From contig VFZU01000006.1 in assembly GCA_016870995.1 (NCBI GenBank), positions 1 to 64,000 of the forward strand: a stretch of DNA of 64,000 bases. Reading direction: 5' to 3'. A program made the translations under genes and the position numbers. The number at the start of each line of letters is the position of its first letter. Positions within the stretch are counted from its first letter, which is position 1. Shown one piece after another: positions 53,035 through 59,670 of the stretch. Origin of the DNA: Acidobacteriota bacterium. GTDB taxonomy: Bacteria > Acidobacteriota > Terriglobia > Bryobacterales > Bryobacteraceae. Under the pieces are notes generated by a model. It searched no databases. It saw nothing but the letters and a program-made list of their open reading frames with translations, and had not been told where the DNA came from.

Positions 53035-53401
53035 GCTCCTTCATAATCTCGGCGTCAAGCCCGAATCCCGCGTCTCGCTACTCGGGATTCGGGACGCCGA
53101 ATTCCTTCGCGCAATTCTCCCCAACGTCACCAATCCCTCCCAGCACCGCGCCACAAAAGACTCAGACCTCATCATCCTCGGCGTCGAAGCCGAAGGCCAA
53201 CTCAAACGCCTCGAACCCCTCAAGAAATACCTCACCCCCAACGGTGCCATCTGGATCGTCTACCCGAAGGGCCAATCCCACATCACACAAGCCCAGGTCT
53301 TCGCCGCCATCAAATCCGCCGGCCTCACCGACAACAAAGTCTGCAGCTTCTCCGAAACCCACACCGCCCTCCGCGCCTGCATCCCCGTCTTACAGCGCTA
53401 G
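53027..53401 (+). CDS. DUF3052-like small protein, complete copy
   Basis: A 124-residue protein similar to DUF3052 proteins, a Rossmann-like half without a clear active site. It starts with TTG 53027 (SELLHNLGVKPESRVSLLG), overlapping the isomerase by 8 nt, and runs through DSDLIILGVEAEGQLKRLEPL, GAIWIVYPKGQSHI and the end TALRACIPVLQR. The last 121 bp recur almost unchanged 1625 bp downstream in a truncated copy. Function unknown; last gene of the sugar operon. Confidence 0.75.
   Translation: MSELLHNLGVKPESRVSLLGIRDAEFLRAILPNVTNPSQHRATKDSDLIILGVEAEGQLKRLEPLKKYLTPNGAIWIVYPKGQSHITQAQVFAAIKSAGLTDNKVCSFSETHTALRACIPVLQR
53270..53390 (+). repeat. Direct repeat, left copy (121 bp)
   Basis: Identical to 54895-55015 except for one base (A at 53287, G at 54912). 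Similarity drops sharply to roughly 85% in the 90 bp before it. It lies within the 3' part of the DUF3052-like gene. Confidence 0.85.
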
Positions 53402-53485
53402 ATTCTTGCCACGAGCTCGGAATTGGATGGAGTCGAAGCTTGCGAAAGCTTTAAAGTAAAACTCTATGTTTCATTTTTTTTTACA

Positions 53486-53515
53486 TTGACAAAAAAAATG
53501 ATCCTAAAGTAACCT
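53486..53515 (+). promoter_or_regulatory. Possible promoter of the inserted segment
   Basis: A consensus TTGACA (53486-53491) is followed after 18 bp by TAACCT (53510-53515) in a very AT-rich stretch. Transcription would start near 53522 and reach the hydrophobic-tail gene. Confidence 0.45.
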
Positions 53516-53536
53516 TCCAACAGAACTAGACGTAAC

Positions 53537-54340
53537 CTGATTAAAAGCTCATTTTCCATAATTCCTGCGGCAATCGCTGGTAACGGTTTTCTTGCCGCCG
53601 CCCAATCCTCAGGCATCTCCCTTTACTCACAGTTCTTGAATCTCCCCGAATTTGCTTCTTTTTCGCGAATTTCAACAGCCTTAACCTCAGGAGTGCTTGT
53701 TTCCGGGGCGAGCATCTTAGAGTCGGTCGCGGCCCGAAGGCTGAATCGCGTACACCTGATGAGTCTCATGCCGATTGCTGCTGTATCGATTAACCACTTA
53801 AGCGAGGCCAAAATTCCTGAGAGTTTGGCTAGGAGTTCCGATTTGTGGAGTCGAATCGCAGCAGAGGACAAGGAATTCAAGTTCGCAAGAGTAACTTATC
53901 CAGGACTATTGGCGAACCACGGTATTGCCTCACAAGACGAAACGGTGAAGAAAGTGATCGCGTCAACCCGTGAGTTCCGAAACAGCAGTGCAATTAGGAG
54001 TAAAGTCACAACAGGGCTTCGTCAGTCGTTCGAAAATCTGATCCGGATGCTCACTTTTCAGCTTCCGAAACTCGTCCCAGCGTCCACGAACTCAATTCGA
54101 GGCGCCTTTCCAGCCCAATTGATACAAAGCCAATCCTCGTCTACCGATCAACTTGTTCAAGAATCAAACAATTTGATTAACGCTGGCGGTGTCATTGGCG
54201 GTGCAGCGACTGTTGTAGGTGCATTTGCGCCAACTGGTTCAACCGCCGCCGCGGCTGCCGTTGCAGTTGCTGGGGCAGGCGGTCTTTTGGTTCTGGCCGG
54301 CCCTGTCGGTTTGGCGGTAGCATGGTGGTTGACCCATTAG
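53537..54340 (+). CDS. Unknown protein with a Gly/Ala-rich hydrophobic C-terminal hairpin
   Basis: A frame of up to 267 residues in AT-richer DNA. The start is uncertain: CTG 53537 gives IKSSFSIIPAAIAGNGF, and TTG 53636 is the next usual codon. The first part is mixed; the last 50 residues form two glycine- and alanine-rich hydrophobic stretches (NAGGVIGGAATVVGAF and AAAVAVAGAGGLLVLAGP) ending in AWWLTH, like a membrane-inserting hairpin. No family is recognised. It is directly followed by a small membrane protein gene. Base composition differs from both neighbours, indicating transfer. Confidence 0.6.
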   Translation: MIKSSFSIIPAAIAGNGFLAAAQSSGISLYSQFLNLPEFASFSRISTALTSGVLVSGASILESVAARRLNRVHLMSLMPIAAVSINHLSEAKIPESLARSSDLWSRIAAEDKEFKFARVTYPGLLANHGIASQDETVKKVIASTREFRNSSAIRSKVTTGLRQSFENLIRMLTFQLPKLVPASTNSIRGAFPAQLIQSQSSSTDQLVQESNNLINAGGVIGGAATVVGAFAPTGSTAAAAAVAVAGAGGLLVLAGPVGLAVAWWLTH

Positions 54341-54357
54341 CGAAGGGACTATGTTGC

Positions 54358-54666
54358 ATGGAAAAAATGGCTTTCATCAAGAAAACTGAGTTAGGAATAC
54401 ACTACCTTCTGCTTACTTGCGTTGCTTTGGTGGTTCTCCTAGGCGTTGCGCGGTCAGTTGATCTGATTATTGAACCAAGACAAATTCGCCCATTTCGTCA
54501 GGTGGCATTAGTGGGCTTTGGCCTCGCACTAGTCTTCATGGAGAATTTTTATTGGCGGAAATTCCGACCTTCAGAAGAAACACCTGTTTTTCGATTTGCC
54601 TTAGGCTCCCTGCGCTTGGCCCAATTCGTTTTCTTGGGTTTGTCGCCTGCTTACTTGAATTCCTAA
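54358..54666 (+). CDS. Small multi-pass membrane protein of the inserted segment
   Basis: A 102-residue protein with two clear transmembrane helices (HYLLLTCVALVVLLGV and VALVGFGLALVFMENFYW) and a third likely one near the end (LAQFVFLGLSP). ATG 54358 is preceded by AAGGGA 9 nt upstream. It begins 18 nt after the stop of the hydrophobic-hairpin protein. Small membrane partners next to pore-like proteins are often immunity factors, but nothing in the sequence proves this. Composition is AT-rich like its partner. Confidence 0.6.
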   Translation: MEKMAFIKKTELGIHYLLLTCVALVVLLGVARSVDLIIEPRQIRPFRQVALVGFGLALVFMENFYWRKFRPSEETPVFRFALGSLRLAQFVFLGLSPAYLNS

Positions 54667-54782
54667 CCATCGCTTTTGCGAATGAGTTGAAAGCAGATTG
54701 GGGCTGGAATCTCAATTCATGAATTGATTTGTTTTCGACCTCAACTCTTGCATTTTGCTGCTTCAACCTCCACGCCGTCAAA

Positions 54783-55031
54783 GTGCCAGACCATATCTCT
54801 CTCGGTGTCGAATCGGAAGGCCCTCTCAAACGCCTTGAACTCCTCAAGAAATACATCACCCCCTCGGGCGGCATCTGGATCGTCTACCCCAAAGGCCAAT
54901 CCCACATCACGCAAGCCCAGGTCTTCGCCGCCATCAAATCCGCCGGCCTCACCGACAACAAAGTCTGCAGCTTCTCCGAAACCCACACCGCCCTCCGCGC
55001 CTGCATCCCCGTCTCGCAACGAAAATTGTGA
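54783..55031 (+). pseudogene. Truncated second copy of the DUF3052-like gene
   Basis: The frame matches the second half of the complete copy (HISLGVESEGPLKRLEL, GGIWIVYPKGQSHI, TALRACIPVSQRKL) but lacks about 50 N-terminal residues, which are replaced by the foreign segment. No start codon with a ribosome site precedes the homologous part. It is best read as a 3' remnant of a tandem paralogue. Confidence 0.75.
54895..55015 (+). repeat. Direct repeat, right copy (121 bp)
   Basis: Partner of 53270-53390 with 120 of 121 identical bases. Recombination between the two would delete the 1.6-kb segment between them. Confidence 0.85.
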
Positions 55032-55079
55032 TAGCCTTTTTTGACCCGATTCACTCTGCTCTCTCACTTACCTAACCAG

Positions 55080-56567
55080 ATGAAAATCCCAAAATCGAAC
55101 CGCCGTCTGCGCATAGCAGCACTAGCCCTAACTTGTCTCTCACTTCCCGTCATGCCCGCCTGGAGCATCGACCTCGACAACGGCAACGCTCCCGTCCAGG
55201 TGGTCATCACTACCGCCGCCCCCATCATCTTTTCTGACATCTCTCCATCCGGCGCTGACGCAACCGTAGTCCTTCGCGCCACAACGCTAATCACCAACGC
55301 CTGGTTCGACGCCACTGCGCCCTACCATCCCACTGCCCTCGGCATCTACTCACGCCTCGGTCGCCGCCCCGTTCCAGAGCGCACCACACGCAACATCAAC
55401 ATCGCCAGCCTCTACGCCAGCTACCGCGTGCTCAACAGCATCCTTCCCAAGCGAGCCTCCGCTTGGCGCGCGATGCTCCAGGCCGAAGGTCTCAATCCCG
55501 ACGACAACTCTGAAGACATCTCCACCGCCGTCGGCCTCGGCAACAAAGCCGGCAAAGCCGTCGTCGCCTTCCGCGAACGCGACGGCATGAATCAGCTCGG
55601 CGACGAAGGCGGCGTCAAATACAACCGCCAGCCCTACGCCGACACAACGGGCTACCAACCCGTCAACTCCCCCACTGATCTGCGTGAACCCGGGCGTTGG
55701 CAACCTCGCATCACCTCAAACGGCAATGGCATCTACAAGGTCCAGCAGTTTGTCACGCCTCAGTACGCCAAGGTCCGGCCCTATTCTTACAACTCCCCTG
55801 CCAACTTCGAGGCGCCGCGACCGGACGCGAGCAACCCTCGCGGCCCCAAAGGCTTCAGCGCCTACAAGGCCCAAGTCGATGAGGTCTTACAAGCTTCCGC
55901 AAACCTGACCGACCGCCAAAAGCTCACTGTCGAACTCTTCAACAACAAGATCAACAGCCTCGGCTTCTCGGCCGTCTTCGCAGCCCTATCCCGCGGCCTC
56001 AGCATCATCGACTTCATCCATCTCGACTTCCTCACAAACATGGCTGCCTTCGATACCGGTATCGCCGTCTGGAAAGAGAAGGCCCGTTGGGACGCCGTTC
56101 GTCCCACCAGCGCCGTGCGCTACGTCTACGGCAATCGCCCGGTCACCGCCTGGGGCGGTCCAGGCAAAGGCACTGTCACCGATCTTCCGGCCGACCAATG
56201 GAAAGAGTACGTCGACGTGGCCGACCATCCTGAGTATCCTTCCGGCTCGGCCGCCTTCTGCGGAGCCCATGCCCAATCCGCACGCCGCTTCCTCGGCAAC
56301 GATGTCCTCAACTGGTCTGTCCCGATTCCCAAAGGTGGTTCTGTTGTCGAACCCGGCATCACTCCCGCCGCAGATCTCGTCCTCGGCCCCTGGGCCACCT
56401 GGACCGAATTCGAAGCCGATTGCGGCATCTCCCGGCTCTGGGGCGGCGTCCACTTCCGTCCCGCCATTGAGGAAGGCTATCCGCTTGGCCGCCTGATCGG
56501 CAACATCGCCTTTGAGTTCCTCAAGCAACACATCGACGGCAACGCTCCGCCTCTTCCTCTGCCCTAA
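55080..56567 (+). CDS. Vanadium-dependent haloperoxidase-like protein, exported
   Basis: A 495-residue secreted protein of the PAP2/vanadium haloperoxidase superfamily. A signal peptide (RIAALALTCLSLPVMPAWS) precedes a helical domain. The vanadate/phosphate site is visible as KARWDAVRPTSAV (Lys, Arg), HPEYPSGSAAFCGAHAQ (Ser-Gly and the acid-base His) and SRLWGGVHFRPAIEEG (Arg and His). Members oxidise halides with hydrogen peroxide, though some acidobacterial relatives are uncharacterised. ATG 55080 is chosen for the signal peptide. A remnant of a second copy follows the stop. Confidence 0.9.
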   Translation: MKIPKSNRRLRIAALALTCLSLPVMPAWSIDLDNGNAPVQVVITTAAPIIFSDISPSGADATVVLRATTLITNAWFDATAPYHPTALGIYSRLGRRPVPERTTRNINIASLYASYRVLNSILPKRASAWRAMLQAEGLNPDDNSEDISTAVGLGNKAGKAVVAFRERDGMNQLGDEGGVKYNRQPYADTTGYQPVNSPTDLREPGRWQPRITSNGNGIYKVQQFVTPQYAKVRPYSYNSPANFEAPRPDASNPRGPKGFSAYKAQVDEVLQASANLTDRQKLTVELFNNKINSLGFSAVFAALSRGLSIIDFIHLDFLTNMAAFDTGIAVWKEKARWDAVRPTSAVRYVYGNRPVTAWGGPGKGTVTDLPADQWKEYVDVADHPEYPSGSAAFCGAHAQSARRFLGNDVLNWSVPIPKGGSVVEPGITPAADLVLGPWATWTEFEADCGISRLWGGVHFRPAIEEGYPLGRLIGNIAFEFLKQHIDGNAPPLPLP

Positions 56568-56581
56568 TCCCCATCCGCGAC

Positions 56582-56605
56582 GGGGCAGCGCTTTCACGCT
56601 GCCCC
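56582..56605 (+). terminator. Hairpin after the haloperoxidase gene
   Basis: GGGGCAGCG and CGCTGCCCC make a perfect 9-bp stem with a 6-nt loop (CTTTCA), 14 nt after the stop. No U-tract follows, so it may stabilise the 3' end or work with another factor. Confidence 0.6.
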
Positions 56606-56608
56606 ACT

Positions 56609-56690
56609 GCAGACATCGCCCTCGGCCCCTGGGCCACCCGAGCCGAGTTCGAAACCGATAGCGGCATCTCCCGTCTCTGAGGCGATGCCG
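56609..56690 (+). pseudogene. Remnant of a second haloperoxidase gene
   Basis: About 80 bp resemble 56370-56451 of the intact gene with a shift of 239 bp. The translation reads ALGPWATRAEFETDSGISRL then stops, against VLGPWATWTEFEADCGISRL followed by Trp in the real protein; the Trp codon has become TGA. Nothing else of the copy survives. Confidence 0.7.
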
Positions 56691-56695
56691 AATTC

Positions 56696-57082
56696 CTAAA
56701 AGTCCTTCGCGTTCCTCGAACTCCCGGCCATCTCCTTCCGCAATTTCAGATAACCCTCAAACTTCACCTTCTGCTCGGCCGTCAGCACCTTTCGGATGTC
56801 GTCATCTTCATTCAATTGGATCTGCCGCAATTCCTGATGCAGCCTCTGGGTCACAACCTCCAGCTCGGCCATCAGCTTGCTGTCGTTGGCAATACGCGCC
56901 CGCCGCAATTTGCGCAACTCCTGATTCTGCTCCTGCCGTTTCGAGGCAAAGGGCTTTTGGTATCGAGCCTGGATCGTATCCACCTCTCTTGCCTGATCCA
57001 CGCTCAATCCAAGCGTCCCCTTCAACGATGCATCCGCCATCAGGCTCAGCGCCAAGGCAGCGCAAATCAAAATAGTTCTCAT
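56696..57082 (-). CDS. Spy/CpxP-like periplasmic protein
   Basis: A 128-residue exported helical protein. After a signal peptide (MRTILICAALALSLMADA) comes LGLSVDQAREVDTIQARYQKP and the LTAEQKVKFEGYLKLRKEM segment, the LTxxQ motif pattern of Spy/CpxP-type envelope chaperones and metal-stress proteins. Most of the chain is charged coiled helix. The start at 57082 has AGGAG 8 nt upstream. It is divergent from the TonB receptor gene. Specific role unproven. Confidence 0.8.
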   Translation of the reverse strand: MRTILICAALALSLMADASLKGTLGLSVDQAREVDTIQARYQKPFASKRQEQNQELRKLRRARIANDSKLMAELEVVTQRLHQELRQIQLNEDDDIRKVLTAEQKVKFEGYLKLRKEMAGSSRNAKDF

Positions 57083-57230
57083 TGCATTCACTCCTGCCCT
57101 AATTAGCACCATCCCTGTTGAAAACAAGTCATCCGATCCACTGCAAGTCGTTGTCAAAACGACAGGCTTCTTCCAGCCCAACTCCTGGACAGCCCAAATT
57201 TGATCCCGCACCAAAAATCGAATTCAAATC

Positions 57231-57260
57231 TTGACTGTAGGACCCAATTGGTCTTATATT
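57231..57260 (+). promoter_or_regulatory. Promoter of the TonB receptor operon
   Basis: TTGACT (57231-57236) and TATATT (57255-57260) are separated by 18 bp. Transcription would begin near 57267, leaving a leader of roughly 165 nt. Confidence 0.6.
57238..57256 (+). promoter_or_regulatory. Dyad operator between -35 and -10
   Basis: TAGGACCCAATTGGTCTTA is a 19-bp imperfect palindrome (GACC/GGTC core, TA/TA ends; 7 of 9 positions pair) filling the promoter spacer. A repressor bound here would block the polymerase. The regulator is unknown. Confidence 0.5.
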
Positions 57261-57312
57261 CATCAAGTAAGGTATTGCAAGTCATTTGCAATTATCCGAG
57301 CGCGATTAAAAA

Positions 57313-57357
57313 AGAGTTCCGTCGGTCGATCTTTGCCGGAGCAACCTTCGGAACTCT
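57313..57357 (+). promoter_or_regulatory. Long hairpin in the receptor leader
   Basis: AGAGTTCCG (57313-57321) pairs perfectly with CGGAACTCT (57349-57357). The 27-nt interior also has GCCGG/CCTTCGG-type complementarity. It could be a cis-regulatory RNA; no cobalamin-riboswitch consensus is visible. Confidence 0.4.
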
Positions 57358-57432
57358 CCCATCGCAAACCATCGAAATGGCTCGCGAACCCCTAGCATAG
57401 CGGGAGCGCGGCCCTGTCGCCAAGGAGTTCCC

Positions 57433-59646
57433 GTGCATTTGCTGATTCCGCTTGTCTTTCTCTGGTCTCTGGACCCAATCCTCGTCAAAACTCTCGACCC
57501 CCAGGGCAAACTCGTCCCCGCTGTTCAGGTCGAGGCCACCAACAACCAAACCCATCAAACCTTCACTTGTTCGTCTGATGCAACTGGCTCCTGTCGGCTC
57601 ACACTGCCCAATCCCGGCGCTTACACCATCACCGCCACCACTCCAGGCCTCACCTCTCGCTCGGCGCATCAGCTCGCCGACAACTCTCCCACCGTACTCA
57701 CGCTCAATCTCGAACCCTCCACACTCCGCTCTTCGATCACTGTCGTCAGTGGCTCGCGTCTCGAAGAACTTCAGGAAGAATCTCCCACCAAGGTCGAAGT
57801 CGTCACTCGTGCACAGATGCTCTCCACTGGCTACGAGCGCGTCTCCGACGTCCTGCAGGAAATGCCTGGTGTCCTCGTCCGTCGCGGCAACACCTCCACC
57901 GTCGGGGGCGAACAAGTCCAGGGCATCGACTCTCGCCAGGTTCTCGTTCTGCAAGACGGTCTGCCCGTCTTGGGCGCTCGCGGCGTCAAGTCCGGAGCCA
58001 TCAATCTCAGCCGCCAATCCTCGGGCCGTCTTTCTCGCGTTGAGGTCGCCAAGGGTTCCGGCTCCTCCAACTACGGCACCGACGCCGTGGGTGGTGTCAT
58101 CAACATGATCACTCGCGAAGCCTCTGCTCCCATCCAGGGTGGTGTCGTCTTCTCAGGTGGCTCTCTTGGTGCTTTCGATGGCCGCGCCGACCTCGGTAGC
58201 CGCCGTGGCAAGGGCACCTTCTTCCTCGACCTCGGCCAAAACCTTCTCGATTCCTACCGGCTCATCCCCACATCTCCGACCACCGTCGGCCCCAATGTCC
58301 GTCGCCAGGACATCCTCTTCAAATCCCGCTACCAACTCCTCCCCAACTTCTCCCTCGGCGCCACTGTCAACGCCTACCGAAATCGCGAGCAAGGCACCAA
58401 CCTCAGTGAAACCGGCATCGTCAACGGCCTCAGCAACGATTCCAATCAATCCTACGCACTCATCGCCGACTGGATCATCAACCCTTCCACCACCCTCCAG
58501 TCCCGCGCCTACGCAGCTCGCTATGACGAGAACAGCACCACCAGCCCACGTGCTGGCGGCCCCATTGCTCTCGCCAATCTCAACGAACGTCTCAACCGTC
58601 TCGACACAACCCTCAGCCGTCAAATCGGTTCCCATCACTTCTTCCAGGCCGGTGGCGAATGGGCGCAAACTCTCTACCGCGGAGCCAATCGTCTCGTCGG
58701 CGACAACGTAGGCCAACAGGTCACTGCCACCGACCTTTGGGTTCAAGACAAATGGACTCTCAATCGCCGACTCACCTTCACCACCGGCGGTCGCCTCACT
58801 AGCCACTCCATGTTCGGTCGTGCAGCCGTCCCCAAGGCTGGCCTCGTCTTCAAACTCAGCGATGCCTGGATCCTCCGCGGCTCCTTTGGCATGGGCTTCC
58901 GTGTGCCCGACCTCGGACAGCTCTACTTCCGCTTCGCCAATCCCGCCACCTTTTATCAGGTCATCGGAAACCCCAACCTCAATCCCGAACACAGCCAGAG
59001 TTTTCAGGCCGGCGCGCTCTATCGCCACTCACGCTTTCGCCTCGGTGTGGGCCTGTTCCGCAACAACGTTCGTGACCTCATTGAGAGCCGCCTCGTCGGG
59101 ACTCCGCGCACGCCTGCCGACATCAACACTTTACTCACCACCTACGGCATTCCCAGCTCCTTCAATTTGCTGTTGAGCCGCCAGACCTTCTTCTACTTCA
59201 ACCAGTCCCGCATCTTCACCCAGGGCGTAGAGCTCGACGGCGAATTCAATTTCTCCCGTCGCCTGCGCGCAAGCGGCGCCTACACCTACCTCAACGCCCT
59301 CGATCGCATCACAACTCTGGCGCTCCCGCAGCGCCACCGCCACCAGGGCCAGATGCGACTCGACTACGCCATCCCCAAATACGGCATCACCACCAACCTT
59401 CGGGGCTCCTTCTACAGCCACTGGCTGCTGAACTCCGTCGCCGGCACACGTGGCCTCCCATTTCAAATCTGGGACGCCTACATCGCCAAGTCCTGGCGTC
59501 AGGGCTTCCAGTCTTTCCTTGCTGTCGACAACCTCAACAACAGTCGTGACCGCAAGCTGCAACTTCCCACTCCAACCTTTGATCGGCCCGATATCGGTCG
59601 CACCTGGCGTCTCGGCCTCCGCTACCGCTTCGGCTCCGCTGAATAA
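57433..59646 (+). CDS. TonB-dependent receptor (BtuB/CirA-like)
   Basis: A 737-residue outer-membrane receptor. After the signal (LLIPLVFLWS) a carboxypeptidase-regulatory-like domain (VKTLDPQGKLVPAVQVEA...GAYTITAT) precedes the plug (VEVVTRAQMLSTGYERVSDVLQEM, DGLPVLGARG, RVEVAKGSGSSNYGTDAVGG) and a 22-strand-size barrel ending GLRYRFGSAE. GTG 57433 has AAGGAG 6 nt upstream. The next gene encodes a DUF4198 protein, an association known for metal uptake, so nickel, cobalt or copper is the likely cargo class. Confidence 0.92.
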   Translation: MHLLIPLVFLWSLDPILVKTLDPQGKLVPAVQVEATNNQTHQTFTCSSDATGSCRLTLPNPGAYTITATTPGLTSRSAHQLADNSPTVLTLNLEPSTLRSSITVVSGSRLEELQEESPTKVEVVTRAQMLSTGYERVSDVLQEMPGVLVRRGNTSTVGGEQVQGIDSRQVLVLQDGLPVLGARGVKSGAINLSRQSSGRLSRVEVAKGSGSSNYGTDAVGGVINMITREASAPIQGGVVFSGGSLGAFDGRADLGSRRGKGTFFLDLGQNLLDSYRLIPTSPTTVGPNVRRQDILFKSRYQLLPNFSLGATVNAYRNREQGTNLSETGIVNGLSNDSNQSYALIADWIINPSTTLQSRAYAARYDENSTTSPRAGGPIALANLNERLNRLDTTLSRQIGSHHFFQAGGEWAQTLYRGANRLVGDNVGQQVTATDLWVQDKWTLNRRLTFTTGGRLTSHSMFGRAAVPKAGLVFKLSDAWILRGSFGMGFRVPDLGQLYFRFANPATFYQVIGNPNLNPEHSQSFQAGALYRHSRFRLGVGLFRNNVRDLIESRLVGTPRTPADINTLLTTYGIPSSFNLLLSRQTFFYFNQSRIFTQGVELDGEFNFSRRLRASGAYTYLNALDRITTLALPQRHRHQGQMRLDYAIPKYGITTNLRGSFYSHWLLNSVAGTRGLPFQIWDAYIAKSWRQGFQSFLAVDNLNNSRDRKLQLPTPTFDRPDIGRTWRLGLRYRFGSAE

Positions 59647-59670
59647 CTTCCCAACTGAAAGGACTCATTC

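What the first reader, a model, noticed from the sequence alone, without database searches (positions are those of the whole stretch)
53402..55079. Foreign 1.6-kb cassette between a complete and a truncated copy of one gene, with a pore-like protein and a small membrane protein
AT-richer DNA with its own TTGACA promoter encodes a protein ending in a Gly/Ala-rich double hydrophobic hairpin, followed 18 nt later by a 102-residue, two- to three-helix membrane protein. It is bounded by 121-bp direct repeats with 120 identical bases, both from the DUF3052-like gene. The hairpin-plus-small-membrane-protein order resembles pore-forming bacteriocin and immunity pairs, but there is no sequence proof of that function. 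The repeats could excise the cassette.
Basis: partly seen in the sequence, partly recalled or inferred. Interest (0 to 1): 0.62.

Follow-up and report, generated by a model that had tools for sequence, protein, structure and literature searches.

The report
Twin foreign gene-pair cassettes flanked by fragments
Two related, otherwise unknown pairs of genes have been dropped into this bacterial chromosome 12 kb apart, each right behind a normal gene and in front of a beheaded, slightly different copy of that same gene, which suggests a repeated way of capturing foreign DNA; that the pair is a toxin and its antidote is possible but unproven.

Summary
At 53402-54760 lies AT-rich DNA (47.6% GC; the genome's 1.4-kb windows average 57.6%, sd 2.3). 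It is bounded by an intact gene X and a 5'-truncated diverged copy X' (228 nt at 91%, 120 of 121 at the 3' end). It holds two genes without database relatives: a helical protein with a Gly/Ala-rich hydrophobic C-terminus and a 102-residue three-helix membrane protein. The first gene lacks a usable ATG/GTG/TTG before its leader, and the claimed promoter has no -10 box.
New: a paralogous cassette (40% and 26% identity, 47.8% GC) lies 12 kb downstream, also between an intact gene (Y, sugar hydrolase) and a truncated Y'. The family occurs nowhere else searched. Both sit in a 15.1-kb region missing in a congener, where X is followed after 43 nt by the gene beyond the region. In 43% of the genome, all six near-identical nearby gene fragments are C-terminal and downstream. 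Differences concentrate at third codon positions, so fragments look like alleles from another lineage rather than decayed local copies.
Best reading: homology-anchored capture of foreign cassettes, resembling 'insertion with long target duplication'. Pore-former/immunity function is only a plausible guess. An assembly chimera is not excluded.

The parts
53036..53401 (+). Gene X (weakly DUF3052-like), complete; follows oxidoreductase and sugar-isomerase genes
   Evidence: Single-copy in all 7 genus-mates, in the same order oxidoreductase-isomerase-X; Pfam DUF3052 E=0.011 below cut-off
53270..53390 (+). Left direct repeat block, 121 nt, 3' end of X
   Evidence: 120/121 identical to 54894-55014
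53402..54760 (+). Foreign AT-rich cassette 1
   Evidence: 47.6% GC against genome windows 57.6% sd 2.3
53513..54340 (+). Cassette gene 1: 275-codon open frame, Tat-leader-like start (RTRRNLIK...AAAQS), helical, Gly/Ala-rich hydrophobic C-terminus; start codon unclear (TTG 53636, or ATG 53498 interrupted by TAA)
   Evidence: paralogue at C6:65492-66301, 40% identity; codon positions differ 0.49/0.40/0.68, so constrained as protein
54358..54666 (+). Cassette gene 2: 102-residue three-helix membrane protein
   Evidence: paralogue at C6:66307-66639, 26% identity, pairwise E=7e-4
54761..55031 (+). X': 5'-truncated, diverged copy of the 3' part of X with its own stop codon
   Evidence: 91% to X over 53163-53390; differences by codon position 3/5/11
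54894..55014 (+). Right direct repeat block, 121 nt
55080..56567 (+). Vanadium-haloperoxidase-like gene (VCPO_2nd, DUF6851), in the same lineage-specific region, absent from genus-mates
56568..56695 (+). Fragment of the haloperoxidase gene's 3' part, directly behind it
   Evidence: 56364-56445 vs 56603-56684, 84%; tblastn E=5e-7
53402..64000 (.). Part within the window of a 15.1-kb lineage-specific region (contig C6 about 53402-68503) holding both cassettes; no integrase, transposase, tRNA or Rfam RNA found
   Evidence: In congener G004, X (L022 1723-2120) is followed 43 nt later by sequence matching C6 68504-71448 at 83%

Best explanation
This is one of two paralogous, AT-rich, two-gene cassettes of an unknown family, captured horizontally into a variable chromosomal site behind gene X. 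Capture most likely used homology on one side only. Incoming DNA from a relative or mobile source that carried an allele of the host gene next to the cassette recombined with the resident gene, and the other end joined illegitimately inside it. That leaves an intact gene, the cassette, and a 5'-truncated second allele (X', Y'). Shown here: the twin cassettes, the intact-gene/cassette/truncated-allele order twice, foreign composition, absence in relatives, third-position bias of the allele differences. Inferred: the recombination route. The encoded pair most likely acts at the cell envelope as an exported, membrane-active protein with a small membrane partner; effector plus immunity protein is my first guess for this (about 0.35), not shown.
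For: A second cassette at C6:65291-66639 has the same gene order and matching GC (47.8%), and lies between intact Y (3-keto-disaccharide hydrolase) and truncated Y'. The family is found only twice, both in this architecture. Genus-mates have X once and no cassette; G004 has X joined after 43 nt to the sequence that lies beyond the 15.1-kb region here, and G002 has other genes there. Differences between intact genes and fragments pool to 19/23/85 at codon positions 1/2/3; a local copy decaying neutrally beside a conserved gene should give about 26/26/48% (my estimate; chi-square p=1e-4), and nonsynonymous changes are fewer than neutral in all five pairs. Mosaic identity (150 identical nt inside a pair differing by 8%) points to recombination between copies. 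Further cases with other cargo: U32 peptidase gene C9, esterase C35, TadC-like C6, PPDK C18.
Against: No allele of the same species without the cassette was available. The third-position bias is not significant for X alone (p=0.26). TadC' and PPDK' have spacers that are native-like or only 57 nt, so the six cases may not be one process. The fixed polarity (6 of 6 C-terminal and downstream) is not predicted by one-sided homology capture without added selection. The start of gene 1 in cassette 1 is not clear, so this copy may be dead. No toxin or immunity homology.
Confidence: 0.55

Rival explanations
1. Assembly chimera: the draft genome mixes two strains, one with the cassette behind X and one without. 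Contig ends carrying different alleles of X and Y were joined in series, making false truncated copies.
For: Draft in 215 contigs. Fragments behave like strain alleles, with mostly synonymous differences. Strain differences at an insertion are just where assemblers break.
Against: No runs of N at the junctions. Y' carries a 33-nt deletion and changes at residues conserved in all relatives, unlike a living allele. Joining errors should not prefer gene 3' ends, yet 6 of 6 cases do (p=0.016). Estimated contamination is 0.46%. Even so, the cassettes themselves would be real.
Confidence: 0.2
2. Ancient tandem duplication: X and Y were each duplicated in place, the second copies decayed, and AT-rich foreign DNA later inserted in or replaced the 5' part of the decaying copies.
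For: Some old tandem paralogues exist in the genome. Y' shows decay. X-specific changes exist too, so X' is not purely derived.
Against: Needs duplication plus insertion of the same orphan cassette at two loci. No genus-mate keeps a second X. Pooled codon-position pattern rejects local neutral decay (p=1e-4).
Confidence: 0.15
3. Site-specific integration at the 3' ends of protein genes: an element carries a replacement 3' end, restoring the gene and displacing the resident 3' end to its far side.
For: Predicts intact gene, element, 5'-truncated fragment, the 3' polarity and the allelic nature of the fragment.
Against: No integrase or recombinase in the region and no common core sequence found. 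Homology extends upstream of the identical block for 107 nt in X' and over 700 nt in Y', far longer than known attachment cores.
Confidence: 0.1
4. The two genes encode an envelope-maintenance or stress pair rather than an effector and its immunity protein.
For: Tat-like leader and membrane partner fit many envelope roles. The C-terminal hydrophobicity is weaker in the paralogue (peak 1.5 against 2.0). No toxin family match.
Against: Patchy, foreign distribution and fast divergence of both partners (40% and 26%) resemble conflict genes more than housekeeping genes.
Confidence: 0.35

Closest known systems
Insertion with long target duplication (Nobusato et al. 2000, restriction-modification genes; cited in PMC3031569)
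   Same: Small foreign gene pair flanked by long direct repeats of variable length taken from the target gene; no recombinase needed
   Different: The two copies are not identical but diverged, mosaic alleles; the cargo is an orphan pair, not restriction-modification; all cases here lie at gene 3' ends
Homology-facilitated illegitimate recombination in transformable bacteria (PMC3240628; model for type VI effector-immunity arrays in PMC5361080)
   Same: Homology on one side, illegitimate joining on the other, foreign genes trapped, displaced 3' remnants left behind
   Different: Not observed directly; here the displaced remnant belongs to an ordinary metabolic gene, not to the effector gene
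Pore-forming colicin-type bacteriocin with membrane immunity protein (from my own knowledge)
   Same: Hydrophobic C-terminal stretch in the first protein, small multi-helix membrane protein encoded next to it
   Different: No sequence match to any such family; Tat-like leader; Gly/Ala-rich rather than typical hairpin; function untested

Membership tests
Insertion with long target duplication | Insert flanked by long direct repeats derived from the target | tested here: met
   228 nt (X/X') and about 700 nt (Y/Y')
Insertion with long target duplication | Close relative with uninterrupted target and only one repeat copy | tested here: inconclusive
   Seven genus-mates have one X and no cassette, but the best empty site (G004) lacks the whole 15.1-kb region, not just the cassette
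Insertion with long target duplication | Repeat copies arise from one target, so start identical | tested here: not met
   Copies are diverged alleles with third-position bias and identical tracts
Homology-facilitated illegitimate recombination product | One junction homologous, the other without homology | tested here: inconclusive
   Cassette/X' junction shows no repeat of cassette DNA, but the donor sequence is unknown
Homology-facilitated illegitimate recombination product | Natural transformation or other uptake of linear DNA | not tested
   Competence genes were not searched
Pore-forming bacteriocin and immunity pair | Membership in a colicin, bacteriocin or immunity family | tested here: not met
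   No Pfam, NCBIfam, PHROGs, PADLOC or PDB sequence match above cut-off
Pore-forming bacteriocin and immunity pair | Hydrophobic hairpin at the C-terminus | tested here: inconclusive
   Hydropathy peaks at residues 221-239 and 245-263 of P0001, weaker in the paralogue; structure model unusable
Pore-forming bacteriocin and immunity pair | Toxicity relieved by the partner | not testable with these tools
   Needs expression tests
Integrase-driven genomic island | Integrase or other recombinase gene in the element | tested here: not met
   Pfam scan of the other main ORFs of the 15.1-kb region shows TonB receptor, kelch, beta-lactamase, GH10, haloperoxidase; no recombinase
Phage holin (small membrane protein) | Match to a holin family | tested here: not met
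   Phage_holin_2 E=0.017, 15.8 bits against cut-off 32

The most novel reading that the evidence does not exclude
A dedicated, so far undescribed mode of cassette mobility in this bacterial lineage: small foreign gene pairs travel with an allelic 3' end of an ordinary host gene and enter at that gene's 3' end, keeping the gene intact and leaving a beheaded second allele, with a new family of exported protein plus membrane partner as frequent cargo.
Probability: 0.15. Interest if true: 0.8.

Novelty: new variant of a known kind. Interest (0 to 1): 0.5.

Why it matters
Small gene pairs without recombinases are scattered through bacterial genomes and how they move is poorly known. Here the same orphan pair was caught twice with the same scar, an intact host gene in front and a beheaded allele behind, and the scar recurs with other cargo in the same genome. 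This makes the entry route testable by comparing strains. It also gives a simple search rule for finding foreign cassettes: an AT-rich gap between a gene and a downstream fragment of its own 3' end. If the pair proves to be an effector with its immunity protein, it is a new family.

Tried and rejected
Profile and sequence searches for both proteins in Pfam, NCBIfam, PHROGs and PADLOC, and of gene 1 in PDB, phages, plasmids, viral contigs and genome contigs, gave nothing credible; weak family-level profile hits (E 0.005-0.1) were read and rejected as shadow frames or low-complexity matches. AlphaFold of gene 1 failed (pLDDT 34). Gene 2 gave three helices at pLDDT 69 and no significant fold match. 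Sigma-70 promoter and terminator scans of cassette 1 found none. tRNA and Rfam searches of the region found none. Diversity-generating retroelement considered (3' repeat next to a gene) and dropped: no reverse transcriptase among the ORFs, and differences are at third codon positions rather than limited to adenines. Simple decayed local duplicate rejected on pooled codon-position counts, though not for X alone. The haloperoxidase fragment was misfiled as 'up' by my script because it touches the gene end; it is downstream.

Full report
Observation. The cassette, its low GC and the flanking repeats are as described. The repeat is not a clean one. X (53036-53401) and X' (54761-55031) match over 228 nt at 91%; the first 107 nt are clearly diverged and the last 121 nt differ at one base. 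GC is 47.6%, against a genome mean of 57.6% (sd 2.3) in 1.4-kb windows. GC3 of the two genes is 0.49 and 0.45 against 0.72-0.82 in neighbours.

The genes. Gene 1 is an open frame of 275 codons with a leader that looks like a twin-arginine signal (RTRRNLIK ... AAAQS; inference), a helical middle and a Gly/Ala-rich hydrophobic end (the helix assignment comes from a model of very low confidence). It has no ATG, GTG or TTG before position 53636; the ATG at 53498 runs into TAA after four codons. So the copy may be dead or use an unusual start. Gene 2 is a 102-residue protein with three predicted helices. The claimed TTGACA promoter has no -10 partner.

A twin cassette. Searching the window's own genome with gene 1 gave a second copy at contig C6:65291-66639, 12 kb downstream and just outside the window. 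It has the same gene order, 40% identity for gene 1, 26% for gene 2 and 47.8% GC. Codon positions of the gene 1 pair differ by 0.49, 0.40 and 0.68, so the frame is under protein-level constraint. Strikingly, this cassette also stands between a complete gene, Y (3-keto-disaccharide hydrolase), and a 5'-truncated copy, Y' (64501-65232 vs 66912-67610, 88% then 96%). No other member was found in 100 relatives, 395 other genomes of the phylum, 236 of the family or 256 of the order (overlapping sets), nor in genome or viral contigs, phages or plasmids.

The site. All seven genus-mates carry X once, in the order oxidoreductase-isomerase-X, without cassette. In G004, X is followed after 43 nt by sequence matching C6 68504-71448 at 83%. 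The 15.1 kb between, with both cassettes, is therefore lineage-specific. In G002 about 7 kb of other genes fill the same interval. The region holds TonB receptor, kelch, beta-lactamase, GH10 and haloperoxidase genes and no recombinase; the haloperoxidase gene is absent from genus-mates.

A wider pattern. I scanned 2.45 Mb (about 43%) of the genome for nearby same-strand gene fragments. All six with at least 80% amino-acid identity to an intact gene lie downstream of it and come from its C-terminus: X, Y, PPDK (L082), a U32 peptidase gene (L125), an esterase gene (L180) and a TadC-like gene (L065). A weaker seventh follows the haloperoxidase gene. None is N-terminal and upstream. The spacers differ: the orphan cassettes, lower-GC genes in L125 and L180 (53%), native-like genes in L065, 57 nt in L082. 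In L125 a further 117-nt direct repeat is nested inside the insert.

Where the fragments come from. Differences between intact genes and fragments fall at codon positions 1/2/3 as 19/23/85 over five pairs. A local copy decaying beside a conserved gene should give about 26/26/48% by my estimate; the observed pattern rejects that (p=1e-4), mainly through PPDK and TadC, not X alone. X' and Y' also keep states shared with relatives where X and Y have changed. So fragments look like alleles that evolved in another lineage and were later truncated. Long identical tracts inside diverged pairs (150 nt at 8% overall difference) point to recombination between copies.

Mechanism. The simplest reading is one-sided homologous recombination with incoming DNA, the other end joining illegitimately inside the resident gene. 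The product is intact gene, cassette, truncated second allele. This resembles insertion with long target duplication, proposed for restriction-modification genes (cited in PMC3031569), and homology-facilitated illegitimate recombination (PMC3240628; PMC5361080). The 3' polarity is not explained by the route itself; selection to keep promoter and gene together would do it, as would an unknown 3'-end-targeting enzyme. A strain chimera in the assembly could imitate the picture and cannot be excluded without reads, though decay in Y' and the fixed polarity speak against it.

Function. Effector plus immunity protein is a fair guess from anatomy, patchiness and fast divergence of both partners, but every family test failed. 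I give it about 0.35.

Noticed in passing
contig C6:65291-66639 (L003:13292-14640): Second, paralogous two-gene cassette between a complete and a truncated 3-keto-disaccharide hydrolase gene, 12 kb from the first.
   Followed up: yes
55080-56695: Vanadium-haloperoxidase-like gene absent from genus-mates and followed directly by a fragment of its own 3' part (84% over 82 nt).
   Followed up: partly
L125:10421-15562 (contig C9): U32 peptidase gene, then foreign-looking minus-strand genes including a pentapeptide-repeat protein, then a truncated 3' copy of the U32 gene; a further 117-nt direct repeat is nested inside.
   Followed up: partly
L082:628-3990 (contig C18): PPDK gene followed after 57 nt by a 94% identical copy of its last 437 nt and terminator hairpin.
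   Followed up: partly
L180:16800-18865 (contig C35): Esterase gene with a 955-nt spacer encoding a 263-residue membrane protein and fragments of the esterase 3' part beyond it.
   Followed up: partly
L018:1887-10040 (congener G002): In a congener the same interval behind X holds other genes, among them a pair that looks like a toxin-antitoxin system (DUF433/DUF5615-like from memory, not tested), so the site is variable across the genus.
   Followed up: no
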